Shown one piece after another: positions 2,390 through 62,294 of a DNA stretch of 64,000 nt. The stretch is taken from contig JAJEFJ010000021.1 in NCBI GenBank assembly GCA_022820485.1, forward strand, positions 1-64,000. Direction: 5' to 3'. The notes under the pieces were generated by a model that made no database searches, had not been told where the DNA came from, and saw nothing but the letters and a program-made list of their open reading frames with translations. A program made the position numbers and the translations under genes. Numbering within the stretch: position 1 is the stretch's first letter; each line of letters starts with the position of its first letter. Source of the stretch: Candidatus Latescibacterota bacterium. Lineage in GTDB: Bacteria > Latescibacterota > UBA2968 > UBA8231.

Positions 2390-3139
2390 ATGCGTCGACA
2401 CATACTCGCTTGCCTAGCGGGCTACTGCGTCCTCTCTATCTACACTGCCTCCGCCCAAGATGCGCCGACGGCTGGAGGCGAGCACGAAGCCCCCCCCTAT
2501 ATCGTCATCGAAGACTTTGCCTCCACGCCCCTAGACAGCCTGCCTCGCGGCTGGCGCTGGCGCGGCAAGGACGACGACAAACCCAAGCTCTACACCGTTC
2601 GCGAAGCCAACGGCCGGCGCTACCTAGCCGCACAGGACACTGGTCACTCGGTCGTCCTCCTGAAGCGATTCCACTGGGATCCCCGGCAATACCCAATTAT
2701 GACTTGGTGCTGGCGCGCCGACGCCCTGCCACCGGGGGGCGACGAGCGCTATACCGAGACCAACGACAGCGCCGCCGGAGTACACGTCATTTTTTCACGC
2801 AACCTCCTCGGCATCCCGCGACAGATCAAATACGTGTGGAGCACGACCTTGGCCCCAGGCACCGTCTCCCGCCGCAAAGGCATTGCCCGCCCTTGGTTTG
2901 TCGTGCTCCAAAGCGGGCCGGAGAAGTTGGGGCAATGGCTCCAAGAGTGGGTCGATCTAGAAAAGGATCACGAGCGCGTCTTGTCGTCCAAGCTGCCGAA
3001 AAAAACCATCGGCATCGCCTTGCTAACCGATGCCAATTCGACTCGGGGGTACGCCGCAGCCGCCTATGCTGACTTCCGGGTCTGGCCGCGGGCGGCACTG
3101 GCGCACATCCCCAACTACTGCGCCGGCCTCCCCCCATGA
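2390..3139 (+). CDS. DUF3047 domain secreted protein
   Basis: A 249-residue protein with an N-terminal signal peptide (hydrophobic core at residues 5-21, probable cleavage after the Ala-Ser-Ala of TASAQ) and a DUF3047-like domain. Typical features are the WRWRG segment, the MTWCWRADALP strand and the NDSAAGVHVIF segment. No biochemical function is established for this family; the fold is probably a periplasmic beta-sandwich. It follows the flippase-like gene by 18 bases, with an AGAGG ribosome site before the ATG at 2390. Its last four bases overlap the glycosyltransferase start (ATGA). Co-transcription with lipid and glycan genes suggests an envelope role. Confidence 0.75.
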   Translation: MRRHILACLAGYCVLSIYTASAQDAPTAGGEHEAPPYIVIEDFASTPLDSLPRGWRWRGKDDDKPKLYTVREANGRRYLAAQDTGHSVVLLKRFHWDPRQYPIMTWCWRADALPPGGDERYTETNDSAAGVHVIFSRNLLGIPRQIKYVWSTTLAPGTVSRRKGIARPWFVVLQSGPEKLGQWLQEWVDLEKDHERVLSSKLPKKTIGIALLTDANSTRGYAAAAYADFRVWPRAALAHIPNYCAGLPP

Positions 3140-4287
3140 GGATCTGCATCGACGCTCGCTCCCTGCGCGATGTGCCCACCAGCCTCGGCCGCTACGCCGC
3201 CGATCTCGTCAGCCATATCGCCAAGCTAGACCGCGAAAACGAGTATATCATCGTCCGCCGTCCCTCGCGCCACGGCCCCATCGCCGATCAGGCCAACTTC
3301 AGGGAGATTTTCGCACCGCACGACATTTCCTCGCCGCACAACATCCTCACCGGTGCCCGGGTCATCAACGGGCTCGACGCCGACGTGTACCACTCCCTAT
3401 ACCACTTTCTCCCCATCGGCGTACGCGCTCGGCACGTCGTCATCACCCTACACGACCTGATCTGGGTGGATCATTCTTACCTCGCCGACGGACGACGCTG
3501 GCGGCGCTGGGTCAAGGGGTCCTTGGGCAGCTTCGGCATCCGCCGAGCCATCGCCGCAGCCGACCACATCGTCGCCGTCTCCGCAAGTACGCGCCAAGCC
3601 GCGCTCGACCACGGCGTCCCCGCCGACAAAGTAACCGCCATCCTCCACGGCGTGGCTCCTGCTTGGCACTCGAATAATGCGGAACCAGCCCAGTTTGACT
3701 TGGGCCATGCGACCGATCAAGACCAAGCGCAACAGGATATTCTCAACGGTCTTGCCGAACGGCCTTTTGCGTTTGGCCTAGGCAACAGCTTACCCTACAA
3801 AAACCTGCCTCGGCTAGTACGCGCCTTTGCCCAAGTCGCCCCGGACCATCCCGATCTCGCGCTCGTATTCGCCGGCCGCGGCGAGGGCAATCCCGCTCTC
3901 GTGCAACTGGCGCACCAACTCGGTCTAAACGACCGAGTCCTCCTCGCCGGTCAACTCAGCGACGAGCAAATCCGCGCCTGTTTTGCCCACGCGCTCTTTT
4001 TCGCGTTCCCGTCGCTGATAGAGGGATTCGGGTTGCCCGTGCTCGAAGCAATGGCCAGCGGCTGTCCGGTGCTCACGTCGAACTGTTCATCGCTCGCCGA
4101 AGTCGCCGGAGAAGATGCAGTGCTCGTCAATCCGCTCGACACCGCAGCCATCGCCGCCGGGATGCAGAGCCTGCTGACCGATCCCGCACTCCGCCAACGG
4201 CTATCGCACCAAGGACGCCACCGAGCCGCTACCTTCACGTGGGAAGACGCGGCCCAGCGAACTATTCAGTTGTATAAGCGGCTATAG
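3136..4287 (+). CDS. Glycosyltransferase family 4 protein
   Basis: A 383-residue GT-B glycosyltransferase of the GT4 type, expected to transfer a nucleotide-activated sugar to a lipid or glycan acceptor in the cytoplasm. The C-terminal donor-binding half carries the retaining E-x7-E motif (EGFGLPVLE, about residues 296-304) followed by MASGCPVL. The N-terminal half has the short NDP-sugar loop around the Arg/Gly stretch at 15-20. The start overlaps the DUF3047 gene by four bases, so it is the last gene of the operon beginning at 57. The final ~100 bases are duplicated in degraded form at 5057-5157, across the hicBA module. Confidence 0.9.
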   Translation: MRICIDARSLRDVPTSLGRYAADLVSHIAKLDRENEYIIVRRPSRHGPIADQANFREIFAPHDISSPHNILTGARVINGLDADVYHSLYHFLPIGVRARHVVITLHDLIWVDHSYLADGRRWRRWVKGSLGSFGIRRAIAAADHIVAVSASTRQAALDHGVPADKVTAILHGVAPAWHSNNAEPAQFDLGHATDQDQAQQDILNGLAERPFAFGLGNSLPYKNLPRLVRAFAQVAPDHPDLALVFAGRGEGNPALVQLAHQLGLNDRVLLAGQLSDEQIRACFAHALFFAFPSLIEGFGLPVLEAMASGCPVLTSNCSSLAEVAGEDAVLVNPLDTAAIAAGMQSLLTDPALRQRLSHQGRHRAATFTWEDAAQRTIQLYKRL

Positions 4288-4362
4288 CCGCCGCGCCGCA
4301 GACGGCGTGTCCGGTCCATTTCACATTTGGGTTGATTTGCCGCGAGTTGTAAACTATTACTA

Positions 4363-4410
4363 GTTGAGGAGGCTGGCGGTTCTATAGAGGGGGTTTCGAA
4401 GCGCGAATAA
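4363..4410 (+). pseudogene. Remnant of the 3' end of a second P-loop GTPase gene
   Basis: These 48 bases translate to VEEAGGSIEGVSKRE plus stop. The intact GTPase at 5358-7652 ends VEEAGGSVEGISARE plus stop. By hand alignment 40 of 48 bases match the intact 3' end (7605-7652), and most differences fall at third codon positions, so the fragment comes from a diverged homologue that was once under protein-level selection, not from a recent copy. No recognisable GTPase coding sequence remains upstream. The fragment lies directly before hicB and ends in the same TAA-AAA context as the intact gene. Confidence 0.7.
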
Positions 4411-4424
4411 AAGGAGGGATAGGT

Positions 4425-4694
4425 ATGAAAACGTATTTGTTTGAGGCTGTCTTAGAGAAAGACAAATGGCCCGATGAGCCCGATGAGAAAGCGGTCTGGC
4501 GAGCCTATATTCCCGAGCTAGAGCACAAAGGGGCTGCGAGTTGGGGATATACCGAGAAAGAGGCTTTAGAGAATTTAGAAAATGCTGTTGATCTTCTCGT
4601 TGCGCATCTGCTGGAGATTGGAGAAGGCATACCTACTGACCCGCCTTCGCAAATTCAGGTCAGCGACGTTCCTTTGGTCGCCGTAGCCGTCTAG
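4425..4694 (+). CDS. hicB: HicB-family antitoxin
   Basis: An 89-residue protein of the HicB/UPF0150 family, whose partial RNase H-like fold binds and neutralises the HicA RNase. Characteristic elements are the N-terminal beta strands (MKTYLFEAVLEK), the central WRAYIPELEHKGAASWGYT stretch, and the helix EKEALENLENAVDLLVAHLLE. It lacks a C-terminal DNA-binding domain, so autoregulation through HicB alone is uncertain. A strong AAAGGAGGG site lies at 4410-4418. It ends one base before hicA, the antitoxin-first order common in minimal hicBA pairs. The module sits between a GTPase-gene remnant and a glycosyltransferase-gene remnant. Confidence 0.85.
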   Translation: MKTYLFEAVLEKDKWPDEPDEKAVWRAYIPELEHKGAASWGYTEKEALENLENAVDLLVAHLLEIGEGIPTDPPSQIQVSDVPLVAVAV

Positions 4695-4695
4695 T

Positions 4696-4947
4696 ATGGC
4701 CATTGATTATAGCAGACTTCGTTCACTGACAGCACGCAGATTGATACGGGCATTAAAAAGAGACGGGTTTCGCGAATACAAAAGAAAAGGCGCGACCCGT
4801 CTTTTTGTTCACCTAGATGGAAGAACGACGACTATTCATCTCCACAATATGAACCAGACCTTTGCTATCGGTACTCTCAAGTCAATCATTGAGCAACAAG
4901 TTCAGTGGGGTGAGAACGACCTCAAGCGTCTTGGACTTTTGAAATGA
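4696..4947 (+). CDS. hicA: HicA-family toxin with altered catalytic motif
   Basis: An 83-residue HicA/YcfA-type protein with a dsRBD-like fold, expected to cleave mRNA. It matches the subfamily with a DGR...H...FAIGTLKSIIEQQ...W...DLKRLGLL pattern. HicA proteins usually carry a Gly-Ser-His motif in the first strands, where the His is catalytic; here the segment reads KGATRLFVHL (residues 31-40), with Ala-Thr in place of Ser-His. The toxin may therefore be weak or inactive, or another His (His39, His48 or His50) may substitute. It starts one base after the hicB stop, so the two are co-translated. Confidence 0.8.
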   Translation: MAIDYSRLRSLTARRLIRALKRDGFREYKRKGATRLFVHLDGRTTTIHLHNMNQTFAIGTLKSIIEQQVQWGENDLKRLGLLK

Positions 4948-5056
4948 TCGTTTTCAACCGCCCCTTCGATACCCCAACGCCCGTCCCAAGCCATATCTAA
5001 CGACAGAACACATCCTGTAAATCTGCGCTCCTCCCGCATGTTCCCGTAATCGCGTC

Positions 5057-5157
5057 GCGCTCCGTCAACGGCTATCGCGCTAAGGCGACAACGGGCCGCA
5101 GCCTTCATGTGGGAAGAAGACGCCCAGCAAACCATTCAACTGTATAAGCAGGTATAG
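5057..5157 (+). pseudogene. Degenerate duplicate of the GT4 glycosyltransferase 3' end
   Basis: About 82 of 101 aligned positions match bases 4186-4287, the 3' end of the intact glycosyltransferase, with one single-base deletion that breaks the frame. After the deletion it reads AAFMWEEDAQQTIQLYKQV plus stop, against AATFTWEDAAQRTIQLYKRL in the intact gene. It lies in direct orientation relative to the intact 3' end, so hicBA is bracketed by two copies of the same gene end. The divergence argues against a recent tandem slip and for arrival with foreign DNA or an old event. Confidence 0.75.
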
Positions 5158-5214
5158 CCTGTAGCTATCCGCTGCATCGCATATCCGCATGATGGTCCCG
5201 TGCTCGGCTGTTGA
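5155..5214 (-). pseudogene. Remnant of a sulfotransferase 3' end (copy A)
   Basis: On the minus strand this reads STAEHGTIMRICDAADSYRL. The intact sulfotransferase at 59167-60255 ends STVERDAIMQICGATAKNYGL. The match covers about 20 codons with one codon missing, and the stop TAG has become TAC. The remnant meets the glycosyltransferase remnant tail to tail at 5155-5157. A second, better-preserved copy lies at 7903-7959 in the same orientation, so the two bracket the GTPase module. Confidence 0.6.
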
Positions 5215-5270
5215 ACGTTGCTTCATCTTGAGATCGACAACGGCGTTGTTCGGCGTTGTATCAAAAGCTC

Positions 5271-5299
5271 TTGACAAGACGCTTGTCGCTATCTATTTT
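5271..5299 (+). promoter_or_regulatory. Sigma-70-like promoter with inverted-repeat operator for the GTPase gene
   Basis: A consensus -35 TTGACA (5271-5276), a 17-base spacer and a -10 TATTTT (5294-5299) lie about 60 bases before the GTPase start. The spacer includes most of a perfect inverted repeat, GACAAG-ACG-CTTGTC (5273-5287), suited to binding a repressor that would block the promoter. Both elements are seen directly; regulation is inferred. Confidence 0.5.
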
Positions 5300-5357
5300 C
5301 TTTTCTCGTTACAACATCGAACAACATGTTTTATCTTCTCAATCAAGGAGAACGGCA

Positions 5358-7652
5358 ATGGCAAACAAAACGTACAAGGCATCCAAAACGCGCTCACAAG
5401 ATAGGCCAGGCTGGAGCGTAATTTTCAGCCACCCACTCCGCACAGACACCCGTGGGAAGTCTGGACTGAAGGTGCGGCGTGGTCTTGGAACAAAGGATGA
5501 TGCCGAGGCGGACCGACTAGTTGATCAACTTAACATTTTGCTTGGTGCCCCGTCCTGGTGGAGCCTTGATCGGCGCGCCGAGGCCGAACAGCAGTTCGAT
5601 AGCGCCGTCGTCAAAGCGTTCTTTGACAAGATTGAGGTTGGCAAAATTAAGTCCAAAGACCGACGAGAGACGATTATTCCTTTGCCTAAGCCGGAGGGGG
5701 GCTACGCGAGAGTGATGCTAGTTGGCTCCACGGGAGCGGGCAAAACCACCCTGCTACGCCAACTTATCGGCTCCGATCAGTTCCCCTCTACGTCGACGGC
5801 AAGGACAACGACTGCTGACATTGAGATAGTTAATGCTGACACCCCCTTTCAAGCTGTAATTACTTTTACGACCGAGCACGAGGTTCGCTGCGCCGTTGAC
5901 GAGTGTCTAGAAGAGGCGTGTGCAAGCGTAATTCACGGGCGTGACGACAAGGGAATCGCCACCGCTCTCTTGGGACACCGGGAACAACGTTTTCGGCTCT
6001 CTTATATCCTTGGTTCTTGGCAACAGAGACAGCCGGGCAACGAGACTGATGAGTACGAAATGGACTACAGTTACGACGATGAAACAACGGAAACTGAGAC
6101 TCTGCCGGCAGATGAGACCATTAGCGGTGACGAAATCACCGCTAACAATGAACGTCTGCGTGAGTACGTTTCCCGTATCAAGAAAATATCGACGGCAGTA
6201 CGCGAGCAATTGGCGTCCGAGGGCGGTGACTTTCAAGATATGGATAACGCTAACAAGCGATATAAGTGGTTAGAAAAATTCATCGACGCTCTGTACGACA
6301 ATCGCTACTTCGTGGACCTATCCCTCGATATCATGGACGCCGTAGCAGAGCGGTTCTCTTTGATTGCTGCGCCGGGTGAGTTTGAGCCGGGCGTGGGTTG
6401 GCCAGACCTTTGGCGATATGAGGAAACGGACCGTAGTGCCTTCTTGAAGCAAGTACGCTGGTTCTCAGGCAATCACCATTGGCAATTTGGGAGGTTGCTG
6501 ACACCTCTGGTTGACGGCATCCGGGTGCGTGGCCCCTTCCAACCCGCCGAAACCGAACTACAGGATGACGAGCGACGGCTAGTACTTATAGACGGCGAAG
6601 GCTTGGGGCACTCGGCGAAGGAAGCTTCCAGTGTATCCACAAAGGTAACGGAGAAGTTTTCCGAAATGGATATGATTCTGCTGGTGGACAACGCGCAATC
6701 ACCGATGCAAGCCGCCCCTTTGGAACTCCTGCGGTCGGTCGGTAGTAGCGGGCATGGAGACAAAATCGCTATCGCCTTTACGCATTTTGACCAAGTGAAA
6801 GGGGAGAACCTCAGTACCTATAACGAGAAACGGAATCATGTTCGTGACTCAATCGCCAACGCCTGTACCAGCCTGCGCGAATCACTGGGGGCACCGGTAA
6901 CGGAGATACTGGAACGAAGGCTGGAGAGCAGGGACTTTTACTTGGGCGGTCTAGATAGAGCCACGAATAAACTACCGCTCAAGGTCTTCAACAGAGAAAT
7001 AAAGGAGAGGGGGAACTTGCTGGAGCAGATGAAACAGTCAGCTCAACCCTCTGAGCAGATTGCCATCGCTCCATTCTACAATCTTGCTCTACTAGAGCTT
7101 CCTTTGCGCGACGCCACCGACGGGTTCAAACACCCTTGGATGGGTCGGCTAGGTCTCACTTACTATGAGGGTATCCGCAAGGAACACTGGGGACGAGTCA
7201 AAGCATTGTGCAGGCGCCTCGCTAACAGGTGGGACATTGAATATAACGGCTTGCGACCGGTTGCCGACCTGATTCGTCAGTTGCAGATCGGTATCTCCTT
7301 GTGGCTGGATAATCCAAATGGATGGACTAGGCAACCAGAGAGTGAAGACGAAAGGCATGCCGCCATTGACGCTATCCGTCAGCGCGTGTTCAAGGACATC
7401 CACGATTTGGCCGAGCAGCGTATAATCGTATCCCATCAAGCTGGTTGGCGAAGGGCCTTTGCGTTCAGTGGAATAGGGTCGAGCAACGACCGGGCAAAGG
7501 AGATGGCACAGATTTATGACGCGGCTGCGCCGTCTATCACATCGGTGAGAGACATGCCAACACAAGAATTCCTAGATAGGGTTATCCAGATTGTCCAAGA
7601 TGCTGTTGAGGAGGCCGGCGGCTCGGTAGAGGGGATTTCGGCGCGAGAATAA
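5358..7652 (+). CDS. Large P-loop GTPase of unknown family
   Basis: A 764-residue protein with a P-loop GSTGAGKTT (123-131), a threonine-rich switch-like stretch (150-152), a DxxG motif LIDGEGLG (Asp412) and a likely base-specificity motif THFD (475-478). This order fits a TRAFAC/dynamin- or AIG1-like GTPase with an unusually long, acidic insert between G1 and G3 (about 225-280). The first ~75 residues, rich in basic and aromatic residues with GLGTKDDAEADRLVDQLN, resemble the arm-type N-terminal region of integrases, but this is only a visual likeness. No membrane segment is obvious. AGGAG at 5346-5350 supports the ATG at 5358. Lower GC than the neighbours, the duplicated flanks and the adjacent toxin-antitoxin pair suggest horizontal acquisition. 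A defence role is plausible but unproven. Confidence 0.75.
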   Translation: MANKTYKASKTRSQDRPGWSVIFSHPLRTDTRGKSGLKVRRGLGTKDDAEADRLVDQLNILLGAPSWWSLDRRAEAEQQFDSAVVKAFFDKIEVGKIKSKDRRETIIPLPKPEGGYARVMLVGSTGAGKTTLLRQLIGSDQFPSTSTARTTTADIEIVNADTPFQAVITFTTEHEVRCAVDECLEEACASVIHGRDDKGIATALLGHREQRFRLSYILGSWQQRQPGNETDEYEMDYSYDDETTETETLPADETISGDEITANNERLREYVSRIKKISTAVREQLASEGGDFQDMDNANKRYKWLEKFIDALYDNRYFVDLSLDIMDAVAERFSLIAAPGEFEPGVGWPDLWRYEETDRSAFLKQVRWFSGNHHWQFGRLLTPLVDGIRVRGPFQPAETELQDDERRLVLIDGEGLGHSAKEASSVSTKVTEKFSEMDMILLVDNAQSPMQAAPLELLRSVGSSGHGDKIAIAFTHFDQVKGENLSTYNEKRNHVRDSIANACTSLRESLGAPVTEILERRLESRDFYLGGLDRATNKLPLKVFNREIKERGNLLEQMKQSAQPSEQIAIAPFYNLALLELPLRDATDGFKHPWMGRLGLTYYEGIRKEHWGRVKALCRRLANRWDIEYNGLRPVADLIRQLQIGISLWLDNPNGWTRQPESEDERHAAIDAIRQRVFKDIHDLAEQRIIVSHQAGWRRAFAFSGIGSSNDRAKEMAQIYDAAAPSITSVRDMPTQEFLDRVIQIVQDAVEEAGGSVEGISARE

Positions 7653-7681
7653 AAATCTTAACCCCCAATAAGGAGAAACTT

Positions 7682-7915
7682 ATGCCCTCCTACGGAAGGA
7701 CGGAAGCATACATCCGCAAGGAAGCCGCTAGTCAAGCCATCGAAAAGACCATTCAAGAGGTTGAGAAGACGTTGAGCATTGAGATTCGGAGAGGGAATAC
7801 CCCTGATGAGAGTAGGCAGAATATGCTAACTATACTAGAGAATTGCTTTGATTTTGATAAGTATCTGGGCAGTTTAGATGACGACGAATTGAACGAATTT
7901 ATTTATAACCCGTAG
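7682..7915 (+). CDS. Small acidic helical protein, probable partner of the GTPase
   Basis: A 77-residue protein I do not recognise. It has a strong AAGGAG site at 7670-7675 and follows the GTPase by 29 bases, so it is almost certainly co-transcribed with it. The sequence is predicted mostly helical, starting basic and ending with a very acidic segment (DFDKYLGSLDDDELNEF). No signal peptide, membrane segment or cysteine pair of note. The last four codons and the stop overlap a sulfotransferase-gene remnant on the other strand (7903-7959), so the natural C-terminus may have been altered where the island joins the flank. Confidence 0.6.
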   Translation: MPSYGRTEAYIRKEAASQAIEKTIQEVEKTLSIEIRRGNTPDESRQNMLTILENCFDFDKYLGSLDDDELNEFIYNP

Positions 7916-7959
7916 TTTTTCGCCGACGCGCCGTATATCCGCACTATAGCGCAATCAGC
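7903..7959 (-). pseudogene. Remnant of a sulfotransferase 3' end (copy B)
   Basis: On the minus strand this reads ADCAIVRIYGASAKNYGL plus stop TAA. The intact sulfotransferase at 59167 ends ERDAIMQICGATAKNYGL plus TAG, so 11 of 18 residues are identical, with the terminal AKNYGL exact. It lies between the small GTPase partner and the convergent oxidoreductase gene, whose stop starts at 7961. No upstream sulfotransferase sequence survives. It repeats copy A at 5155-5214 in the same orientation. Confidence 0.65.
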
Positions 7960-7960
7960 A

Positions 7961-9010
7961 TCATTGGGTGGAAGCTATGCGGTCAGATGGCGGAGAACCC
8001 ATGGGATGCGGCCCATTGGTCAGAGTGCTTCGGCGGGCGTGGTCGTACACCGCATCCTGTATTCCTAGAACGCGCACGGCCTGGTCGATATTGGGAGTAA
8101 AAGAGCGTCCATCCGCCAAAGCGGTCAGGGCTTGATCGACAATGGTCGTCATGCGCTCGCCGTGCGACAAATCCTCACTGAATTGCACGCCCTCGGTAGT
8201 GTGAACTTCGATTAGAGGCTCGCCCTCTTTGCCGTACTGCTGGAACACCATGGCGCGAGTGCCGATAAAGCGGAAGAAGTGGTCGCCGCTACGCACTCCT
8301 GACGGATAGGCGTAGCCGCTTTCAATAACGCCGGTCACCCCCCCATCCGTGCGCAGCATTCCCAAACCAATATCCTCCACTATACGACCATGAGTGGCAT
8401 TGGACATGACGGCCCCGACCACGTGTACCGTCTGCTCGCCGACGAATTGCAGGAAAGTGTCAATGCCGTGGGCCGCCTCTACGGCCCAACTGCCGCCGCC
8501 GGAAATGGCCGGGTCGTTGTGCCAAGCCGAGGGCGTCGGGTCGTAGCGCGAGGGCGGGCCGTTATTGAGGCGGCAACTATACTGGACCAAATCGCCCAGC
8601 GTGCCATCAGCTAACAGACGCTCCACCGTGGCGACGATGCGGCTGGCGCGGTTGGGCAAGGTGAGGGCGCTGAAGACCTCGTGTTTGGCCGAAGCTTCGG
8701 CTGCGGGGCGAAGCCGAGCAGCGCAATCGGCAAAGGGTTTGTCGAGCAGATAGGGAATGCGCCGATCGACGCAGGCCTGTACGTGATCCGGTATTTCAAT
8801 GTGCTTGCCAGCGACTAGGGCGGCGTCGGGCTGCACAGCGTCGAGGCACTCGCCCGCCGTGGCAAAGCCTGGGCATTGAAAAATCTCTGCAAGTTGTTGG
8901 CGCGGGCCTTCTTCCCCATCCATAACCCCGATTATATCGTGTCCCAAGGCGCGGATGGTCTGGCCGATGCCGCGGCCGTGGTGGCTGTACGACAGGATAA
9001 CTAGGCGCAT
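7961..9010 (-). CDS. Gfo/Idh/MocA-family oxidoreductase
   Basis: A 349-residue NAD(P)-dependent dehydrogenase-like protein expected to act on a sugar or polyol. The N-terminal Rossmann half starts MRLVILSYSHHGRGIGQT. LLDKPFA corresponds to the EKP motif that positions the nicotinamide, and SWAVEAAHGID fits the C-terminal substrate-domain helix with its conserved His. The ATG at 9010 overlaps the upstream SAF-domain dehydrogenase by 10 bases; an open frame continues to 9193 but would overlap that gene further without homology. The two probably form one catabolic unit, substrate unknown. Confidence 0.85.
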   Translation of the reverse strand: MRLVILSYSHHGRGIGQTIRALGHDIIGVMDGEEGPRQQLAEIFQCPGFATAGECLDAVQPDAALVAGKHIEIPDHVQACVDRRIPYLLDKPFADCAARLRPAAEASAKHEVFSALTLPNRASRIVATVERLLADGTLGDLVQYSCRLNNGPPSRYDPTPSAWHNDPAISGGGSWAVEAAHGIDTFLQFVGEQTVHVVGAVMSNATHGRIVEDIGLGMLRTDGGVTGVIESGYAYPSGVRSGDHFFRFIGTRAMVFQQYGKEGEPLIEVHTTEGVQFSEDLSHGERMTTIVDQALTALADGRSFTPNIDQAVRVLGIQDAVYDHARRSTLTNGPHPMGSPPSDRIASTQ

Positions 9011-10341
9011 AGGTCGGCCTCCTGTTGGCGACGCAAGGTGAGCAATTCGGAGTCGGGCAGTTCGACATCGTCGTAGGTGATCAGATCGTCCTCGGGGATG
9101 TCGCGGGTGAGTACGGCCCCTTGCGACAGACCTATGGGCAGCAGGTTGCCAGAGCGGGCGAGAGCGGCTTTTTCCAACAGGCCGTACGCGCAATAACCAC
9201 CCTCGCCATCGAGCACAGTGCCAGCGGCGAGGGGCTTTTTCGCTGCGGTCACGACCTCGGCGTAATGGCCGATGGGGTGCCCCGAGGTCTGGCCGTCGAG
9301 GGCGATGCGCGCCGCGCTGATGGGCATTTCGTGGCCGACCCAGTGCTGCGGGCGGTAGATCATGCCGTAACCGCTGCGCTGGCCGATAATCATGCCGATG
9401 ATTTCGCCGTACGAGCCGAGCGATTCCAAGGCAAAGGGCGTGGCCCCATCGACGACGCAGTACAGGCCTCCGCGCAGACCGCGCTCGACGGCCTGCTCAT
9501 TCTCGCCAATGATACTGACCGCCTCGACCACGCCTTCTGCGTCGAGCAGTCCGCCCTTGCTCCGATGGCACAAAATGTCGGGGATCTGGCGCAAGTCAGA
9601 CGTGGGGAAGTGCATGCCGCGCACATCGGGCACGAGACCGCTCATATTGGCCAGACAGGCCATTTCAATGGCGTGCTTAGTGCCGTCTAAAAATGAACCA
9701 AACATCTGGGCGTTGTAATCGCGGCCGGTAAAGCCGTACAGGCGCGGCACATCGTCGGGATTGGCTTTGCGGAAGGCAGTCTTAAAGCGCGTCCCCTTGC
9801 CAGCGGCTATTACCCTGAAACCGAGGGCGCGGGCCCAGTCCCACAGTTCCAAGGCGCAGGCCGGCTCATCGCCGTACGCGGCGCTGTAGAGTACGCCAGC
9901 TTGGTCGGCCAGTTTCTTCAGTTGGCTGCCGACGACTACATCGGCCTCCACCGTGACCATGACTAGGTGCTTTTTTTGCGCGATGGCATAGCGGGCATGG
10001 GCTGCCCCAGCCTCGACGTTGCCCGTGGCCTCGATAACTAGGTCAAGGCCGCTCTCCATCAGGGCGCGGGCATCGCCGGTGACGGCGTAGCGACCCGCCT
10101 CCATGGCCGCGTCAATGGCCGCGGGGTCGTCGGCTGTGTCTATCTGATCGTCGGGGATCTGGCCTCGGCCGTATGCACGCCGGGCTTTGGTTAGGTCTAA
10201 TTCGGCAATGGCGGCTAGGCGCATGCCGGGGGCGTAGGCCAGTTGTGAGGCGATCTGGGTGCCAAAGGTGCCAGCCGCAATGAGGCCGACCTGAACGGGT
10301 GTACCCCTTTGGTCGAGTTGGCGCAAGCGATGGTACAACAT
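9001..10341 (-). CDS. NAD(P)-dependent dehydrogenase with C-terminal SAF domain
   Basis: A 446-residue protein with an N-terminal homoserine-dehydrogenase-like Rossmann domain (VGLIAAGTFGTQIASQL, about residues 18-34) and a C-terminal SAF-type domain (about 370-440, LPIGLSQGAVLTRDIPEDDLITYDDV). Such proteins are often mis-annotated as flagellar FlgA-like because of the SAF domain. They more likely act in sugar-acid or tetronate metabolism, but the reaction is not established here. AAAGGA lies eight bases before the ATG at 10341. It is followed by the Gfo/Idh gene with a 10-base overlap, indicating coupled expression. Confidence 0.8.
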   Translation of the reverse strand: MLYHRLRQLDQRGTPVQVGLIAAGTFGTQIASQLAYAPGMRLAAIAELDLTKARRAYGRGQIPDDQIDTADDPAAIDAAMEAGRYAVTGDARALMESGLDLVIEATGNVEAGAAHARYAIAQKKHLVMVTVEADVVVGSQLKKLADQAGVLYSAAYGDEPACALELWDWARALGFRVIAAGKGTRFKTAFRKANPDDVPRLYGFTGRDYNAQMFGSFLDGTKHAIEMACLANMSGLVPDVRGMHFPTSDLRQIPDILCHRSKGGLLDAEGVVEAVSIIGENEQAVERGLRGGLYCVVDGATPFALESLGSYGEIIGMIIGQRSGYGMIYRPQHWVGHEMPISAARIALDGQTSGHPIGHYAEVVTAAKKPLAAGTVLDGEGGYCAYGLLEKAALARSGNLLPIGLSQGAVLTRDIPEDDLITYDDVELPDSELLTLRRQQEADLCA

Positions 10342-10415: not shown

Positions 10416-11003
10416 TCAGGGCGATGGATTGGCACCTGCCGCCCACTCAGTTTTGGCGATGCGCATATCGCAGATAGCGCGCGCTTTGCCGCCGGGCGGC
10501 TGCGGAATGTGAGCCACGACGTGGAAGCCCACTTTGGTAAACGCCGCGCGGCTACGGGGATTGTAGTCGGCAATATCACAGGCGAAGATAAAGTCGGCCT
10601 TCTCCTCGGCAAAACCAAAATCGACCAACGCGCAGATTATTTCCGTCCCCAAGCCCTTATTCCAGTATTGCTTCTCGCCAATGGACAGATCAATGCGGCG
10701 GCAGTCACTGTCGGGATGGGCCTCGATAATGCGAGACAGATTCATGGCCTGCAACCAAGCCTCGGCAATGGGCTGGCCGTCGAGTTCGGCGATAAAGCAG
10801 AAGGCAGCTTGCGAAATGCCGCCATAAATGCGCTTGATCTGGTCGAGTGTATAGGCCGTCACATCCGCGCCATCGGCGTAATACAACACATCGGGATCTT
10901 GGTTCCAGCGCAGCAAAGTGTCCCAATCGGCGTCGGTCATGGGACGCAGGTGCAGGCGGGGTGTGTGCAGGTGAACGGGGTGGGTGTTGAGGGAAGGCGG
11001 CAT
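10416..11003 (-). CDS. GNAT-family N-acetyltransferase (RimJ/RimL-like)
   Basis: A 195-residue acetyl-CoA-dependent acyltransferase. The opening LHTPRLHLRPMTDADWDTLL is typical of RimJ/RimL-type GNATs acting on protein N-termini or small amines. The acetyl-CoA pyrophosphate loop is seen as YWNKGLGTEII (about 118-128), followed by the CDIADYNPRSRAAFTKVGF segment typical of the C-terminal half. I place the start at ATG 11003; the open frame to 11219 runs through the neighbouring gene and shows no family similarity. Substrate unknown. Confidence 0.85.
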   Translation of the reverse strand: MPPSLNTHPVHLHTPRLHLRPMTDADWDTLLRWNQDPDVLYYADGADVTAYTLDQIKRIYGGISQAAFCFIAELDGQPIAEAWLQAMNLSRIIEAHPDSDCRRIDLSIGEKQYWNKGLGTEIICALVDFGFAEEKADFIFACDIADYNPRSRAAFTKVGFHVVAHIPQPPGGKARAICDMRIAKTEWAAGANPSP

Positions 11004-11041
11004 GGTGCCTGCGAAGCCCAAACGGATCGGGCTAGGCAGCT

Positions 11042-11401
11042 CTACGTCCCCGTCATTCTGTCGGCATCGGCGACGGGACGACGAAGATACTTTGGATCGG
11101 CGATAGTCCTGATCAATTGCTGAGACCACGCCTTCTGCGGATCGTTTACGTACTCCCAGAGATTTCCGGGCAGCCAGCCATTCACGGTCTGGGGGTCCAT
11201 TTCCGTAACCATGAACCACACATCATTAGGCAGTCGATCGCGAAGAATGGCACTGAGGTCCTGAGTATTAAGTCTGGAGACAAGGATGGCGGAGTACGGA
11301 AACGGCGCAATCCATGTTTGAATTCCCTCAGTGTTGTTGAGAACATCGTGCGCCTGCGCTGGTGTGCAAGGTTGGCTGAACGTAAAGAGATAGGATTTCA
11401 T
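11042..11401 (-). CDS. Small protein of unknown function, possible ferredoxin-like fold
   Basis: A 119-residue protein I cannot assign. The pattern MKSYLFTF...ILVSRLNTQDLSAIL...DVWFMVTEM...GWLPGNLWEYV suggests an alpha/beta ferredoxin-like fold of the kind in Cas2/SinR-like proteins, but no catalytic residue is certain. Its ATG overlaps the stop of the upstream membrane-protein gene by four bases (ATGA), so the two are translated together. The pairing of a small soluble protein with a two-pass membrane protein resembles some toxin-antitoxin or defence cassettes; this is speculation. Confidence 0.55.
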   Translation of the reverse strand: MKSYLFTFSQPCTPAQAHDVLNNTEGIQTWIAPFPYSAILVSRLNTQDLSAILRDRLPNDVWFMVTEMDPQTVNGWLPGNLWEYVNDPQKAWSQQLIRTIADPKYLRRPVADADRMTGT

Positions 11402-11847
11402 GATAGCTTTTCCTCATCTGTATCGATTGAGGCTGGTGGTTCATCTTCTTCCGACGACGGTCTAGGCGCATCCAGATTTTCTTCCGGGTCTTCCAGCGAA
11501 AGCTCTTCTGTGGGCATTGGATTGGGTAACTCTTTAGCTGCGATCATCCGCATCTGCTCCGTTTTGTATCGGTGCTCCTCTGACTGCAACCTGTCTGGAT
11601 CGTTCTTTGCAAAAAATGCGTAGCGGCGGTGGTAGTCAATCACGATCCCGAGGGCTGCTACCACGAACAAGACGCTGATGAGAGGAACACCTTTGATCAT
11701 AGCTATTGATCGAAAAAACCAAGCCGCAACGATAAACCCCGGGACCAGCACGATGATCGAAGGGACCAGCGGCCCCATGGCTGAGCCCCGTTTGATCAGC
11801 AGTTCTCCGACAGCCTGAAGACCTTCCAATACTCTGTGAAACGACAT
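11398..11847 (-). CDS. Two-pass membrane protein with acidic C-terminal tail
   Basis: A 149-residue protein with two adjacent hydrophobic segments (about residues 27-46 and 51-70) and a cytoplasmic tail that is basic at first (HRRYAFFAKNDPDR) and then strongly acidic (SLEDPEENLDAP, SSEEDEPPASIDTDEE). I do not recognise the family. I chose ATG 11847, just before the predicted amphipathic N-terminus; the frame remains open to 12018 but would overlap the cupin gene. It is co-translated with the 119-residue protein through a four-base overlap. Confidence 0.6.
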   Translation of the reverse strand: MSFHRVLEGLQAVGELLIKRGSAMGPLVPSIIVLVPGFIVAAWFFRSIAMIKGVPLISVLFVVAALGIVIDYHRRYAFFAKNDPDRLQSEEHRYKTEQMRMIAAKELPNPMPTEELSLEDPEENLDAPRPSSEEDEPPASIDTDEEKLS

Positions 11848-11935
11848 CTGCTCATTTCCGGCGGTCAGTTTGATTCTGAACTTAGAGTTATTCCTTTTAC
11901 AACTATATATAAGGCTATGCTCAATGGCGTCAATA

Positions 11936-12331
11936 TCACCCAGACACGGTCGCCAGCCATTTCCCCTCGACCGGATAGGCTTCGTCTTCGCCGGGCCACG
12001 GAGGCATAGTAACGGCAATCGCGGTGAGCGGCTCGTCGCCCAAGGCGCGGAACTGAAAGTGAGTGCCCAACGGAATGGTCAGGCAGACGCCCGGCTCGAC
12101 TGCCACGACTTCCTCGCGGTCGTCCTGCCGCCGCCACATTTGGCCGCGACCAGCGAGGAAAAACCAGATCTCCTCGACCGTGCGGTGGGCAACGGCCTTC
12201 GACGTCTGCCCGGGTTGGAGTTCAAAATGCGCCATGCCGCCGCCTTGCAGACCCAATAGAATGCGCACATCCGAGCCATCGGGAGCGGTCACGTCAGGGG
12301 TGGCGGGCAGTTTTTGCGTGTCGAATTTCAA
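11936..12331 (-). CDS. Cupin-domain protein
   Basis: A 131-residue single-domain cupin. Motif 1 is represented by GQTSKAVAHRTVEEIWFFLAG (first His about residue 49, Glu about 53-54) and motif 2 by PGVCLTIPLGTHFQF (His about 91), which would bind one metal ion. The rest of the sequence is a typical jelly roll. No fused domain indicates the substrate. It stands alone, transcribed away from the metallo-hydrolase gene, with 164 bases between the two starts that should hold both promoters; I see no clear consensus there. Confidence 0.8.
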   Translation of the reverse strand: MKFDTQKLPATPDVTAPDGSDVRILLGLQGGGMAHFELQPGQTSKAVAHRTVEEIWFFLAGRGQMWRRQDDREEVVAVEPGVCLTIPLGTHFQFRALGDEPLTAIAVTMPPWPGEDEAYPVEGKWLATVSG

Positions 12332-59166: not shown

Positions 59167-60255
59167 CTATAGCCCATAATTCTTCGCCGTCGCGCCGCAT
59201 ATCTGCATAATGGCGTCGCGCTCGACGGTGCTAAACGCCTCTTCGTATTGGGGCTGATACGCGACCTGCTCTCCCCAGCCTTTCACCCACGCATCGTCGG
59301 CGTCCAAGTTGCAAAACGTCAGAATGTCCGTAATTTTTTGCTCGGCTGCCGCGCACAAGTGCTCAAACGGCACCACCAAACAGCGCGTCTTAAGCGCCTC
59401 GTGCTGCAGCACCTCCTCGTAGGTCCAAGCGTATATCGCATTCCAGTACTCAGCCCACCCCTCGGCATCGCGCCCTTCGCCCCACAGCGTTTGGATGTGC
59501 CGCGTCTTCTCCGCGTCGATGGTGATGGGAATGCGCTCGTGGCCAAACTCGAAGTGGCCGGCGTTGCGTAGGTACTGGCGGTGAATCGGGGATGAGAAAT
59601 GGGCCAAGTTGCGTTGGTGCTGGCGCGCCATGGATGCGATGTGCGCGACCGGATGGCGCACCGCGATGACGAAGCGCGCGTCCTCGTACAGCTTGGCCAG
59701 ATACGCGATCCGCGTGATATTGTAGTTATTTTTGGAGACAATGCGATCGGCGTCGCGGCACAGCAGCAGCTTCGCCAAGGTCGCCGCGTAAACAGCCTCA
59801 AATTCCGGGTGGCTGGTTTGCCGTTCAACCACATTGTTCTCGGCGGGATCGTGCAGGTAAGCGAAAAACTGCATCCACAGGATTTCTTCCATGGCCTCTG
59901 GACTGTATGCGTTGACCATCACGCCATCGGCATGTGCTCGCTCTTGTTTGCGCGCCGCACCCAACCCGACGGCACGGAAGATGTGGTCGGCCCAAAACGG
60001 CGTAAATGCGCCGTAGTAATCGCAGTATTTGAACGAGGTAAGGCGCGGATGAGACGCCAATATGTTCAGCAGCAGGGTCGTGCCAGCGCGCGCCAAGCCC
60101 GTGATGTAAATGGGCGCGTCCACCGTCCGCCGTGCCAACCGGCCCTTGAGCACCTGCGTCTCCAGCTTGCCCACGTCAATCCAAAAATTCGGATGCGCAT
60201 GAACCAGCCAGCCGAAAAAACGCATCAGCCGCGTGTGATTAAAATCAGTTTCCAT
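59167..60255 (-). CDS. PAPS-dependent sulfotransferase-family protein
   Basis: A 362-residue cytoplasmic sulfotransferase-like enzyme. The 5'-phosphosulfate loop is YITGLARAGTTLLLNIL (about 50-66), and the 3'-phosphate site is FVIAVRHPVAHIASMARQ (about 197-214). It should transfer sulfate from PAPS to a hydroxyl of a small molecule, lipid or glycan. There is no clear ribosome site at ATG 60255. Its C-terminus (ICGATAKNYGL) is the sequence echoed by gene remnants at 5155-5214 and 7903-7959, implying several paralogues in this genome. Confidence 0.85.
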   Translation of the reverse strand: METDFNHTRLMRFFGWLVHAHPNFWIDVGKLETQVLKGRLARRTVDAPIYITGLARAGTTLLLNILASHPRLTSFKYCDYYGAFTPFWADHIFRAVGLGAARKQERAHADGVMVNAYSPEAMEEILWMQFFAYLHDPAENNVVERQTSHPEFEAVYAATLAKLLLCRDADRIVSKNNYNITRIAYLAKLYEDARFVIAVRHPVAHIASMARQHQRNLAHFSSPIHRQYLRNAGHFEFGHERIPITIDAEKTRHIQTLWGEGRDAEGWAEYWNAIYAWTYEEVLQHEALKTRCLVVPFEHLCAAAEQKITDILTFCNLDADDAWVKGWGEQVAYQPQYEEAFSTVERDAIMQICGATAKNYGL

Positions 60256-60320
60256 AGTTTATGCATAAGAAACAACGGACGGATACCGGCGCAACGCCCA
60301 TCCGCAGAGGAGCTACCCCA

Positions 60321-60410
60321 ATGGCCTTAGACGATCTAAAAGAAACCATCGAAACGTTGCGGGAGCGCATTCAGGCGCATCGCCCCTACTTGGAAGGCAA
60401 TCCTGATTAA
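60321..60410 (+). pseudogene. Truncated N-terminus of a restriction-endonuclease-like protein
   Basis: ATG 60321, preceded by AGAGGAG, opens a 29-codon frame, MALDDLKETIETLRERI... ending LEGNPD plus stop. This closely resembles the first ~25 residues of type I restriction-subunit/HsdR-N-like nucleases of the MxLDELKxxIxxLRERIxxHRxYL type. The rest of the nuclease is missing. An in-frame ATG at 60261 would add 20 residues. The assignment rests on recognition of a short N-terminal pattern. Confidence 0.45.
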
Positions 60411-60580
60411 AGGCGAGCGAAGGGGTGTGTTGCCGCGAAGAAACAACGTTGTTGACGCAAGGTAACAGCCCGGCGTATATCACCCCTATCGCGGCCAGAG
60501 AAAACGGGCGGCTGCCCGGCATGGTCCACCTTTTGCTTGAAAGGGACGAATGCGTACCTTTATCCAAGGAGGAATTTCTC

Positions 60581-60931
60581 ATGGCCGAACAGCCGTCCCA
60601 GCCTGTCCCCCCAACGGAATCCACGCTCGCCCTCAGCTTCCTGCGAGAGGATATTCAGGATGTGCGCCAAGATGTGCGTCAGACCAACGAGCGCATTGAT
60701 GTCCTGCGCACCGAGATGAGCGGGCGCATTGATGTCCTGCGCACCGAGATGAACGGGCGCATTGATGCCCTGCGCACCGAGATGAACGAGCGTATTGATC
60801 AGACCAACGAGCGCATTGACGAGTTAGGCAAACAACTCGATTCGCGCTACGCGCGGCTGATGGCCACGCTCATCACCTGCACCGGCATCCTCGTCGCCTC
60901 CTTGGGGACGGCCGTGGCGGTGCTCAAGTAG
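60581..60931 (+). CDS. Coiled-coil protein with C-terminal membrane anchor
   Basis: A 116-residue protein. Residues ~20-85 form a coiled coil built from an 11-residue repeat (GRIDVLRTEMN-type, three near-identical units plus degenerate ones), followed by one membrane segment (about 91-113, LMATLITCTGILVASLGTAVAVL). It resembles small DUF1640-like or tail-anchored coiled-coil proteins often found beside restriction or toxin genes; function unknown. AAGGAGG at 60566-60572 supports ATG 60581; the frame is open from 60425 without coding character. Confidence 0.7.
   Translation: MAEQPSQPVPPTESTLALSFLREDIQDVRQDVRQTNERIDVLRTEMSGRIDVLRTEMNGRIDALRTEMNERIDQTNERIDELGKQLDSRYARLMATLITCTGILVASLGTAVAVLK
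60686..60784 (+). repeat. 33-bp tandem repeat, three units, in frame
   Basis: Units 60686-60718, 60719-60751 and 60752-60784 differ at only a few bases and each encodes an 11-residue coiled-coil repeat. Degenerate half units follow. The near-identity suggests copy-number change by slippage without loss of frame. Confidence 0.85.
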
Positions 60932-60968
60932 GGCCTCTGGTCGGCTAAGCGAATACTCTAACTGCCCC

Positions 60969-62294
60969 ATGCCCTCCCTCTTCCACAAACTCTACATCGC
61001 CACCCTAATCTGCTGTCTCCTATTCCTCGCCTTCATCTACGGCGTGGTGTCGGCAATATTCCACCTCGCCCCCGCTCCCGACATCCGCATCCACGCCGTC
61101 AACGCCTACGGCCACCTCGCCTATCTCTACGAAGACCTCACCGACACCAAAAACCAATACACCAGTACCATGTGGTTCGAAGACGCCAGCGAGCCATCCG
61201 GGGCCATCATCCACAACGCCGCCGCCATGCAGCCCGGCCTGACGCTCGTATCCAAAAACGCCACCGCTGCCGTGCTCATGGACTCCCTCGGCAACATCGT
61301 CCATCAGTGGCAATGCGACTTTGCCGACGCCTTTGACGAAGACGACTTCGCCGCCTTCCCGCAGCAACCCGACATGCTGCACTGGCACCGCACCCATTTG
61401 TACCCCAACGGCGACCTCCTCGCCAACCACGACTACGTCAACCACTACCCCTATGGCTACGGCCTCGTCAAACTCGACAAAAACTCACAGGTCATCTGGA
61501 AATACACTGGCACCGCTCACCACGACTTCGACTTCGACAGCCAAGGCAACATCTACACCCTCGTCCAAGAAATCGGCACCACACCCATCGGCAACATCCA
61601 ACCCCCGTACATCGAAGATTTTGCCGTGGTCATCGACGGAGTAACTGGCCAAGAGAAGCGGCGCTTTTCCATCTTCCGCGCCCTGAAAAACTCGCCGTAT
61701 CGCAGCGTGTTCGACCGCTGGCAGACCACCCGCCACAGCGAAGTCACCCACACCAACGCCATTCGCCTAATCCCGCCGGACTGGGCCACAGCCGCTCACA
61801 TCCCGCGCGCCAAAGCCGGCGACCTGCTCATCTCCCTGCGCAATCCCAACGCCCTCATCATCGTCGATCCCATCGAGCAACAAGTGATCTGGTATGGAGA
61901 GGGGATCTGGAAACAACAGCACGACCCAGACTTCCTGCCCAACGGCCGCCTGCTCCTCTTCGACAATCAGGGCCTGCGCGGCCACCCCTTCGGCCAAAGC
62001 CGCATACTGGAAATCGATCTATTTACGCACGAAATTTACTGGGAGTACAAGGGCACCAGCACCGATCAGATTTTCGACAGTTGGATCCGTGGTGCCCAGC
62101 AGCGGCTGCCCAATGGCAACACCCTCATCACGGAATCGCAACGCGGCCGCCTGCTCGAAGTCACGCCAGCCGGCGAAATCGCGTGGGAATACTACAACCC
62201 AGACCGCGCCGAATACCAAGGCAAACCCCTGCGCGGCATGATGACCCAAGCCCAGAGGATACCCCAAGATGCCCTGTCATTTCTCGATAATTAG
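60969..62294 (+). CDS. Arylsulfotransferase-like beta-propeller, membrane anchored
   Basis: A 441-residue protein with one N-terminal membrane segment (about 8-33) and an extracytoplasmic beta-propeller resembling the arylsulfotransferase (ASST) family: LDKNSQVIWKYTGTAHHDFDFDSQGNIY, HDPDFLPNGRLLLFDNQG and RLPNGNTLITESQRGRLLEV. ASST enzymes use a catalytic His to move sulfate between phenols without PAPS; His-rich segments here (HWHRTHLYPNG, TAHHDF) are candidates. Its 3' end overlaps a small membrane-protein gene by 26 bases. Some family members are structural only. Confidence 0.75.
   Translation: MPSLFHKLYIATLICCLLFLAFIYGVVSAIFHLAPAPDIRIHAVNAYGHLAYLYEDLTDTKNQYTSTMWFEDASEPSGAIIHNAAAMQPGLTLVSKNATAAVLMDSLGNIVHQWQCDFADAFDEDDFAAFPQQPDMLHWHRTHLYPNGDLLANHDYVNHYPYGYGLVKLDKNSQVIWKYTGTAHHDFDFDSQGNIYTLVQEIGTTPIGNIQPPYIEDFAVVIDGVTGQEKRRFSIFRALKNSPYRSVFDRWQTTRHSEVTHTNAIRLIPPDWATAAHIPRAKAGDLLISLRNPNALIIVDPIEQQVIWYGEGIWKQQHDPDFLPNGRLLLFDNQGLRGHPFGQSRILEIDLFTHEIYWEYKGTSTDQIFDSWIRGAQQRLPNGNTLITESQRGRLLEVTPAGEIAWEYYNPDRAEYQGKPLRGMMTQAQRIPQDALSFLDN

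What the first reader, a model, noticed from the sequence alone, without database searches (positions are those of the whole stretch)
4186..7959. Island bounded by duplicated gene 3' ends
From left to right: intact GT4 end, GTPase 3' remnant, hicBA, GT4 3' remnant, sulfotransferase 3' remnant, intact GTPase plus partner, second sulfotransferase 3' remnant. Each module is bracketed by direct repeats of a gene end, as if modules are exchanged by recombination at conserved 3' ends or by an element that rebuilds gene ends on insertion. No integrase or IS is visible.
Basis: partly seen in the sequence, partly recalled or inferred. Interest (0 to 1): 0.85.

Follow-up and report, generated by a model that had tools for sequence, protein, structure and literature searches.

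The report
Gene-gain hotspot between convergent genes
In a bacterium whose relatives are filed as uncultured Latescibacteria, one spot between two facing genes has repeatedly gained and lost small blocks of genes, and partial copies of the neighbouring gene ends mark where blocks were joined, although no integrase was found there.

Summary
The GT4 3' end is copied at 5056-5159 (81%), the GTPase 3' end at 4363-4412 (84%), the antisense sulfotransferase (ST) 3' end at 7904-7951 (79% to the intact ST at 59167-60255) and about 5168-5230. In two divergent same-genus genomes GT4 and ST are convergent neighbours under 100 bp apart; in the window they are 55 kb apart, so the finding lies in an insertion hotspot at a convergent junction. 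Of eight clade genomes (window's included) four are empty here and three others hold different or truncated cargo. Junction copies flanking cargo recur in the genus; the clearest is a 13.6 kb BREX island between 284-bp repeats (99.3%) in single-contig genome G007. The copies vary in length, involve 5' as well as 3' ends, and insert ends look unrelated; no Ku (11 genomes) or serine recombinase (5 genomes) was found. A control genome of another family has at least as many direct repeats. Best reading: host recombination adds and deletes cargo here; the window is two hotspot alleles stacked by one illegitimate join. It resembles known integrase-less hotspots and the microcin H47 island. How the repeats arise is not shown.

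The parts
3136..4287 (+). GT4 glycosyltransferase, intact; left border of the hotspot
   Evidence: Pfam Glycos_transf_1 9.9e-35; match in 10 of 10 same-genus relatives, 69-93% identity
4288..4362 (-). Degenerate antisense ST 3' tail after GT4 (junction copy J1)
   Evidence: Not significant alone (83 of 500 shuffles); aligned to the G007 stretch that does match the ST end (0 of 500)
4363..4412 (+). GTPase 3' remnant
   Evidence: 84% to 7605-7654; also in G010 and, shortened, by eye in G007; nearest to the window GTPase among five GTPase tails, 40/48
4425..4694 (+). hicB-like antitoxin, 89 aa
   Evidence: Pfam HicB_lk_antitox 20.1 bits, below its cut-off of 27
4696..4947 (+). hicA toxin, 83 aa
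   Evidence: Pfam HicA_toxin 43.3 bits, cut-off 27
5056..5159 (+). GT4 3'-end copy (junction copy J2; proposed seam between stacked alleles)
   Evidence: 81% to 4185-4289; 13/102 differences to GT4 of G001 and of G007, 19/102 to its own GT4
5168..5230 (-). Antisense ST 3'-end remnant of J2
   Evidence: score 46 against a maximum of 38 in 500 shuffles
5358..7652 (+). Large P-loop GTPase, about 764 aa (start codon chosen by eye; the open frame starts at 5256)
   Evidence: Pfam MMR_HSR1 27.6 bits over cut-off 21.9; Dynamin_N below cut-off; full-length homologues in G007 and three named records
7682..7915 (+). 77-aa partner ORF, family unknown
   Evidence: no Pfam, PADLOC or NCBIfam hit; fragment at the same hotspot in G003, 80% over 105 nt
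7904..7951 (-). Antisense ST 3'-end copy (junction copy J3)
   Evidence: 79% to 59168-59215; 0 of 500 shuffles
7961..9193 (-). Gfo/Idh/MocA oxidoreductase, first gene of the ~51 kb segment C
   Evidence: Pfam; 86-94% nucleotide identity in seven clade relatives
59167..60255 (-). Intact sulfotransferase (ST): convergent neighbour of GT4 in G005 and G009
   Evidence: Pfam Sulfotransfer_3
60969..62294 (+). ASST-like gene that follows ST in G005 and G009 too
   Evidence: Pfam Arylsulfotran_2

Best explanation
The junction between the convergent genes GT4 and ST is a gene-gain hotspot run by the host's own recombination, not by a dedicated element. SHOWN: GT4 and ST are neighbours in two divergent same-genus genomes; a ~51 kb segment (C) and smaller cargo separate them in the clade of the window; alternative and empty versions exist in close relatives; junction copies lie between the cargo blocks. 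INFERRED: allele X (GT4 - ST tail - GTPase, later reduced to its 3' end - hicBA), seen in pieces in G010 and G007, and allele Y (GT4 - ST tail - GTPase - partner - ST tail - C), of which G003 keeps a piece, were placed in tandem by one illegitimate join just after hicBA, with homology on the C side. The second GT4 end (5056-5159) is the seam. Deletion between junction copies would give the empty sites. How junction copies first form (one-sided recombination, template switching, or single-crossover integration of a circle) is not settled; the first two rivals below overlap with this explanation in that respect.
For: Order in G005 and G009 and 55-219 kb intervals in five clade genomes. Segment C marker gene in 8 of 8 clade genomes, no match at E 1e-60 in G005 and G006, 38% in G009. 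Empty and alternative alleles, interleaved on the flank tree: G000 filled with G008 empty, G010 part-filled with G002 empty. J2 is nearer to the GT4 of G001 and G007 (13/102) than to its own (19/102). At another site the junction copy in G004 is nearer to G008 (3/108) than to G004's own intact end (12/115), so a copy can come from another lineage. Similar architecture elsewhere: 238 bp around a 136-aa gene in G004, 284 bp at 99.3% around BREX in G007, 239 bp at 99.6% around a two-gene cassette in G007, arrays at GT4-2 in G000 and G001. No Ku in 11 of 11 and no serine recombinase in 5 of 5 genomes; no common insert ends by eye.
Against: In the insertion-end test only 2 of 36 rows (one event, at GT4-2 of G001) beat 40 random placements; the window's three rows did not (19 against control maxima of 24, 28 and 30), because the outermost copies are degenerate. 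No genome shows allele X or Y complete. In the most recent case (BREX: 0/78 and 2/223 differences) both copies are native, which fits duplication at insertion better than import. Control genome G029 has more direct non-paralogue repeats per base at 85% identity (8 direct, 2 inverted in 400 kb, against 11:0 in 819 kb of G007 and 10:3 in 900 kb of G004) and at 96% 1:0 against 6:0 and 1:0. Copies may diverge by neutral decay, so low identity does not prove foreign origin.
Confidence: 0.6

Rival explanations
1. H47-like islets: cargo flanked by junction copies excises and integrates as circles by recombination between the imperfect direct repeats, with host functions supplied in trans. The junction copies then work as attachment sites.
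For: Cargo without recombinase between long direct repeats, near-identical in recent cases; published precedent in E. coli (PMC3191183: abstract and first part of Results read; PMC5426353: abstract read). A two-gene cassette lies near GT4 in the window (11042-12018) and, next to a GT4-like 57-nt fragment, at another junction in G007.
Against: No excised form can be seen in assemblies. Repeat lengths differ between sites. Longer tail copies of GT4 and GT4-2 lie only near the genuine gene; hits elsewhere are 33-42 nt (in several genomes only 40 first-look candidates were scored). It does not explain how the first repeat arose.
Confidence: 0.2
2. Each insertion is a replication error: synthesis switches to foreign or distant DNA and returns upstream, which duplicates roughly 50-300 bp of the target at insertion; no stacking of alleles is needed.
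For: Variable repeat lengths, near-identical native copies around BREX, no common insert ends, and an about 40-nt filler beside a re-copied 70-nt junction piece in the G007 cassette insert.
Against: The G004 copy that resembles G008. In the window several separate duplications would be needed.
Confidence: 0.25
3. An unrecognised site-specific element or integrase with long attachment sites, lost or acting in trans, built a tandem array by accretion.
For: The order J1-A-J2-B-J3-C-ST looks like accretion between attachment sites.
Against: Three tyrosine recombinases in each of four genomes (eight in G001), none on C74; no serine recombinase in 5 of 5; no constant length or end motif.
Confidence: 0.08
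4. Tandem duplication of GT4-GTPase in place followed by decay, with no gain of cargo.
For: The order is formally a tandem of GT4 end and GTPase.
Against: Empty and alternative cargo in relatives, and a GTPase found in only 2 of 40 genomes searched.
Confidence: 0.05

Closest known systems
Integrase-less horizontal-gene-transfer hotspots with recombination at flanking core genes (Oliveira et al. 2017, PMC5635113; passages read)
   Same: Variable cargo between conserved genes, high turnover, often no recognisable mobile element, defence functions.
   Different: The passages read describe exchange at flanking core genes; partial gene-end copies between stacked modules were not among them.
Microcin H47 genomic island of E. 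coli (PMC3191183, abstract and first part of Results; PMC5426353, abstract)
   Same: 13 kb system without its own recombinase between extensive imperfect direct repeats; empty sites in other strains.
   Different: Excision and integration were measured there; here only sequence is available, and several sites with different repeats are involved.
T6SS immunity-gene arrays proposed to arise by homology-facilitated illegitimate recombination in Vibrio cholerae (PMC5361080, passages read)
   Same: New module inserted beside a conserved anchor; older modules, in one case a gene 3' end, are displaced into an array.
   Different: Effector-immunity modules within one cluster; here unrelated cargo between convergent genes.

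Membership tests
HGT hotspot lacking mobile elements | Different gene content between the same conserved flanks in related genomes | tested here: met
   G000, G003, G007, G010 filled differently; G001, G002, G004, G008 empty
HGT hotspot lacking mobile elements | No integrase or transposase in the spot | tested here: inconclusive
   No PF00589 match on C74, no PF00239 in 5 genomes; transposase families were not searched
HGT hotspot lacking mobile elements | Raised homologous recombination in flanking core genes | not tested
   No recombination inference was run
Microcin H47-type island | Direct repeats at both ends of the whole island | tested here: inconclusive
   The window's outer copies J1 and J3 are degenerate; clear for the G007 BREX and G004 136-aa-gene cases
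Microcin H47-type island | Excision and integration between the repeats | not testable with these tools
   Needs cells or reads
Integrase-driven genomic island / accretion array | Integrase gene within or beside the island | tested here: not met
   None on C74
Integrase-driven genomic island / accretion array | Constant attachment core | tested here: not met
   Repeat lengths 36-284 bp and unrelated insert ends by eye
HicAB toxin-antitoxin | HicA domain next to HicB domain | tested here: inconclusive
   HicA over its Pfam cut-off; HicB below
Dynamin family | Dynamin_N domain over cut-off | tested here: not met
   23.5 bits against 27; MMR_HSR1 is over its cut-off

The most novel reading that the evidence does not exclude
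In this genus, junction copies are not only scars but the working parts of a recombinase-free cassette system: circles of cargo plus one gene-end copy form by recombination between junction repeats and re-enter at the same junction in other cells, so that defence and toxin-antitoxin genes circulate with nothing but host recombination.
Probability: 0.15. Interest if true: 0.8.

Novelty: new variant of a known kind. Interest (0 to 1): 0.5.

Why it matters
In the passages read of PMC5635113, half of the hotspots studied lacked evidence of mobile elements and 27% lacked integrases and transposases, and how such hotspots gain DNA is open. A genus with no detected Ku (11 genomes), no detected serine recombinase (5 genomes), few tyrosine recombinases, single-contig assemblies, and near-identical junction repeats around BREX and other cargo offers bounded, recent insertion events in which the joining mechanism could be read directly.

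Tried and rejected
Tyrosine or serine integrase accretion: rejected on recombinase content and lack of a constant core. Ku-dependent end joining: no Ku in 11 of 11 genomes. Strict 3'-end specificity: rejected, 5' ends are copied as well. Long end repeats as a rule for insertions: 34 of 36 directed insertion rows do not exceed their controls. Structure of the GTPase: a five-sequence AlphaFold model has mean pLDDT 53 and was not used for a fold search. PDB sequence search: best E-value 0.11. My note says that 10 bp of GT4 remain at the ST end at 59167; that is not shown, because the stop codons of both genes fall in the same CTATAG, so I dropped it. The GT4-like fragment in G007 shares two letters with J2 that the GT4 genes lack (by eye), but overall it is no closer to J2 (23/79) than to G008 or G001 (21/80), so I do not argue from it. 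Genus-specificity was weakened by control genome G029; a second control (G026) could not be fetched.

Full report
WHAT IS THERE. The window is contig C74:1-64000 of genome G000. They exceed chance, except the stretch directly after GT4 (4288-4362), which is recognised as ST tail only through G007.

THE ORIGINAL SITE. In same-genus genomes G005 and G009, the most divergent of the ten on the flank tree (midpoint root), the gene after GT4 is a convergent sulfotransferase followed by an ASST-like gene, with less than 100 bp between GT4 and ST. The same pair lies in the window at 59167-62294. The GT4-ST distance is 55 kb in G000, 57 kb in G008, 55 kb in G001, 87 kb in G004 and 219 kb in G007 (positions; G002, G003, G006 and G010 have the two genes on different contigs). 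A marker gene of the intervening segment is at 93-100% identity in 8 of 8 clade genomes, has no match at E 1e-60 in G005 and G006, and is 38% identical in G009. So the finding lies at the left edge of what looks like a clade-specific insertion at a convergent junction; that G005 and G009 show the ancestral order, and not a loss, is inference.

RELATIVES. Of the eight clade genomes, G001, G002, G004 and G008 resume the alignment in the oxidoreductase 24-55 bp after the GT4 end. G010 keeps the GTPase remnant and a truncated hicB. G007 has a shortened remnant, other cargo, the end of hicA and an ST tail. G003 has a UPF0175 gene with a 148-aa ORF, and a fragment of the partner. On a flank tree, filled and empty sites interleave: G000 groups with empty G008 (100/99) and G010 with empty G002 (99/98); the places of G004 and G007 are not well resolved. 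The GTPase itself is in 2 of 40 genomes searched (G000, G007); a scan of named genome contigs gave four loci: G007's own record, two records titled Candidatus Binatota and Desulfurellaceae, and one alphaproteobacterium, at 51-68%. G007's contig has the length of record OY282352.1, an uncultured Latescibacteria bacterium, which is how I place the genus.

THE SAME PATTERN ELSEWHERE. In G004, a 238-bp junction repeat (89.5%) flanks a single 136-aa gene (DUF1330-like, recalled, not searched), between a 754-aa gene and an ATPase-like gene; at that site G000 is empty, G001 has a thioredoxin-like gene and G008 an ABC-transporter-like gene (names recalled from sequence). In G007, a BREX island (BrxA, BrxC, PglX, PglZ) of 13.6 kb lies between 284-bp repeats (99.3%) made of two convergent gene ends, with 0/78 and 2/223 differences in the two parts compared. 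Another G007 insert is a two-gene cassette between repeats of 239 bp (99.6%), with an about 40-nt filler; the cassette is 74.8% identical to window 11034-11870. At a second glycosyltransferase gene, GT4-2 (C74:112964-114247), G000 and G001 have cargo separated by copies of its 3' end. Scan counts (200-nt pieces of genes, direct copies under 60 kb away and outside ORFs of 120 aa or more; 3' end, 5' end, middle): G007 819 kb 12, 9, 0; G004 900 kb in two parts 7, 10, 1; G000 154 kb 4, 2, 2; G008 140 kb 0, 2, 1; G001 106 kb 2, 1, 0; control G029 400 kb 1, 6, 0. Inverted copies: G007 1, 1, 0; second part of G004 2, 0, 0; G029 0, 6, 0 (not printed). Near-identical pairs (at least 45 bp and 96%, under 60 kb): G007 10 direct and 0 inverted, G004 3 and 0; several of these are repeats within one ORF. 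Middle-of-gene copies should be purged because they would break the gene, so the bias to gene ends does not itself show mechanism.

MECHANISM. The window is explained by two alternative alleles joined once. Allele X (GTPase then hicBA) and allele Y (GTPase then partner) would both start with GT4 end and ST tail; X followed by Y gives the observed order, and the second GT4 end is the seam. Pieces of X are seen in G010 and G007, a piece of Y in G003; neither is seen whole. The seam copy is nearer to GT4 of G001 and G007 (13/102) than to its own (19/102), and a G004 copy at another site is nearer to G008 (3/108) than to its own intact end (12/115), so at least some copies may be imported. Yet the newest repeat is native on both sides, which suits duplication at insertion. 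I therefore hold the hotspot and the host-recombination origin as likely, the stacked-allele model as the best fit for this window, and the way the repeats form as open.

RESULTS AGAINST. Only 2 of 36 insertion rows (one event) had long end repeats beyond 40 random placements each, and the window's own three rows did not. G029 has at least as many direct non-paralogue repeats per base at 85% identity. Codon-position counts of differences between gene ends and their copies are mixed (for example 4, 5 and 10 for GT4 against J2), which fits both import and decay. The copy at the G004 gene282 site is not close to any relative compared (9/78 to its own gene, 10-13 to the others).

KNOWN KINDS. Integrase-less hotspots (PMC5635113, passages), the H47 island (PMC3191183, abstract and first part of Results; PMC5426353, abstract) and T6SS arrays by homology-facilitated illegitimate recombination (PMC5361080, passages) together cover most of what is seen. 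Searches for long target duplications, convergent-gene hotspots, integrase-independent islands, template switching and related words (listings only, apart from the papers named) did not show this pattern of junction copies between stacked cargo; that is a limited search of open-access papers. One paper on sponge-associated Latescibacterota (PMC12993501, passages of a word search) mentions type II toxin-antitoxin and other defence systems but gave no match for integrase, genomic island or horizontal gene transfer.

Noticed in passing
window 11042-12018 (-): Two-gene cassette of unknown family (no Pfam hit); the stretch 10992-11942 is missing in G001, and a relative of the cassette sits at another junction in G007 beside near-identical 239-bp repeats.
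   Followed up: partly
G000 C74:112964-116393 (L033): Second glycosyltransferase gene whose 3' end is copied between an ATPase (PADLOC PDC-S01) and a toxin-antitoxin-like pair (recalled from sequence); G001 has other cargo between copies.
   Followed up: partly
G007 C1:4630453-4644655 (L132): BREX island between 284-bp direct repeats, 99.3% identical, made of two convergent gene ends; looks recent.
   Followed up: partly
window 5358-7652: Large GTPase with full-length homologues at 51-69% in records titled Binatota, Desulfurellaceae and Alphaproteobacteria; possible defence protein (weak PADLOC mad8 hit, 2.2e-6).
   Followed up: partly
window 9001-10341 (-): This dehydrogenase is missing in G001 (which has an ATPase of the PADLOC PDC-S27 kind there), G003, G007 and G008, but present in G002 and G004, so the region right of the finding is variable too.
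   Followed up: no
G007 C1:4352060-4354333 (L018): A 69% homologue of the GTPase sits 11.4 kb from GT4 in the opposite orientation, with a TIR-like ORF nearby (recalled from sequence).
   Followed up: no
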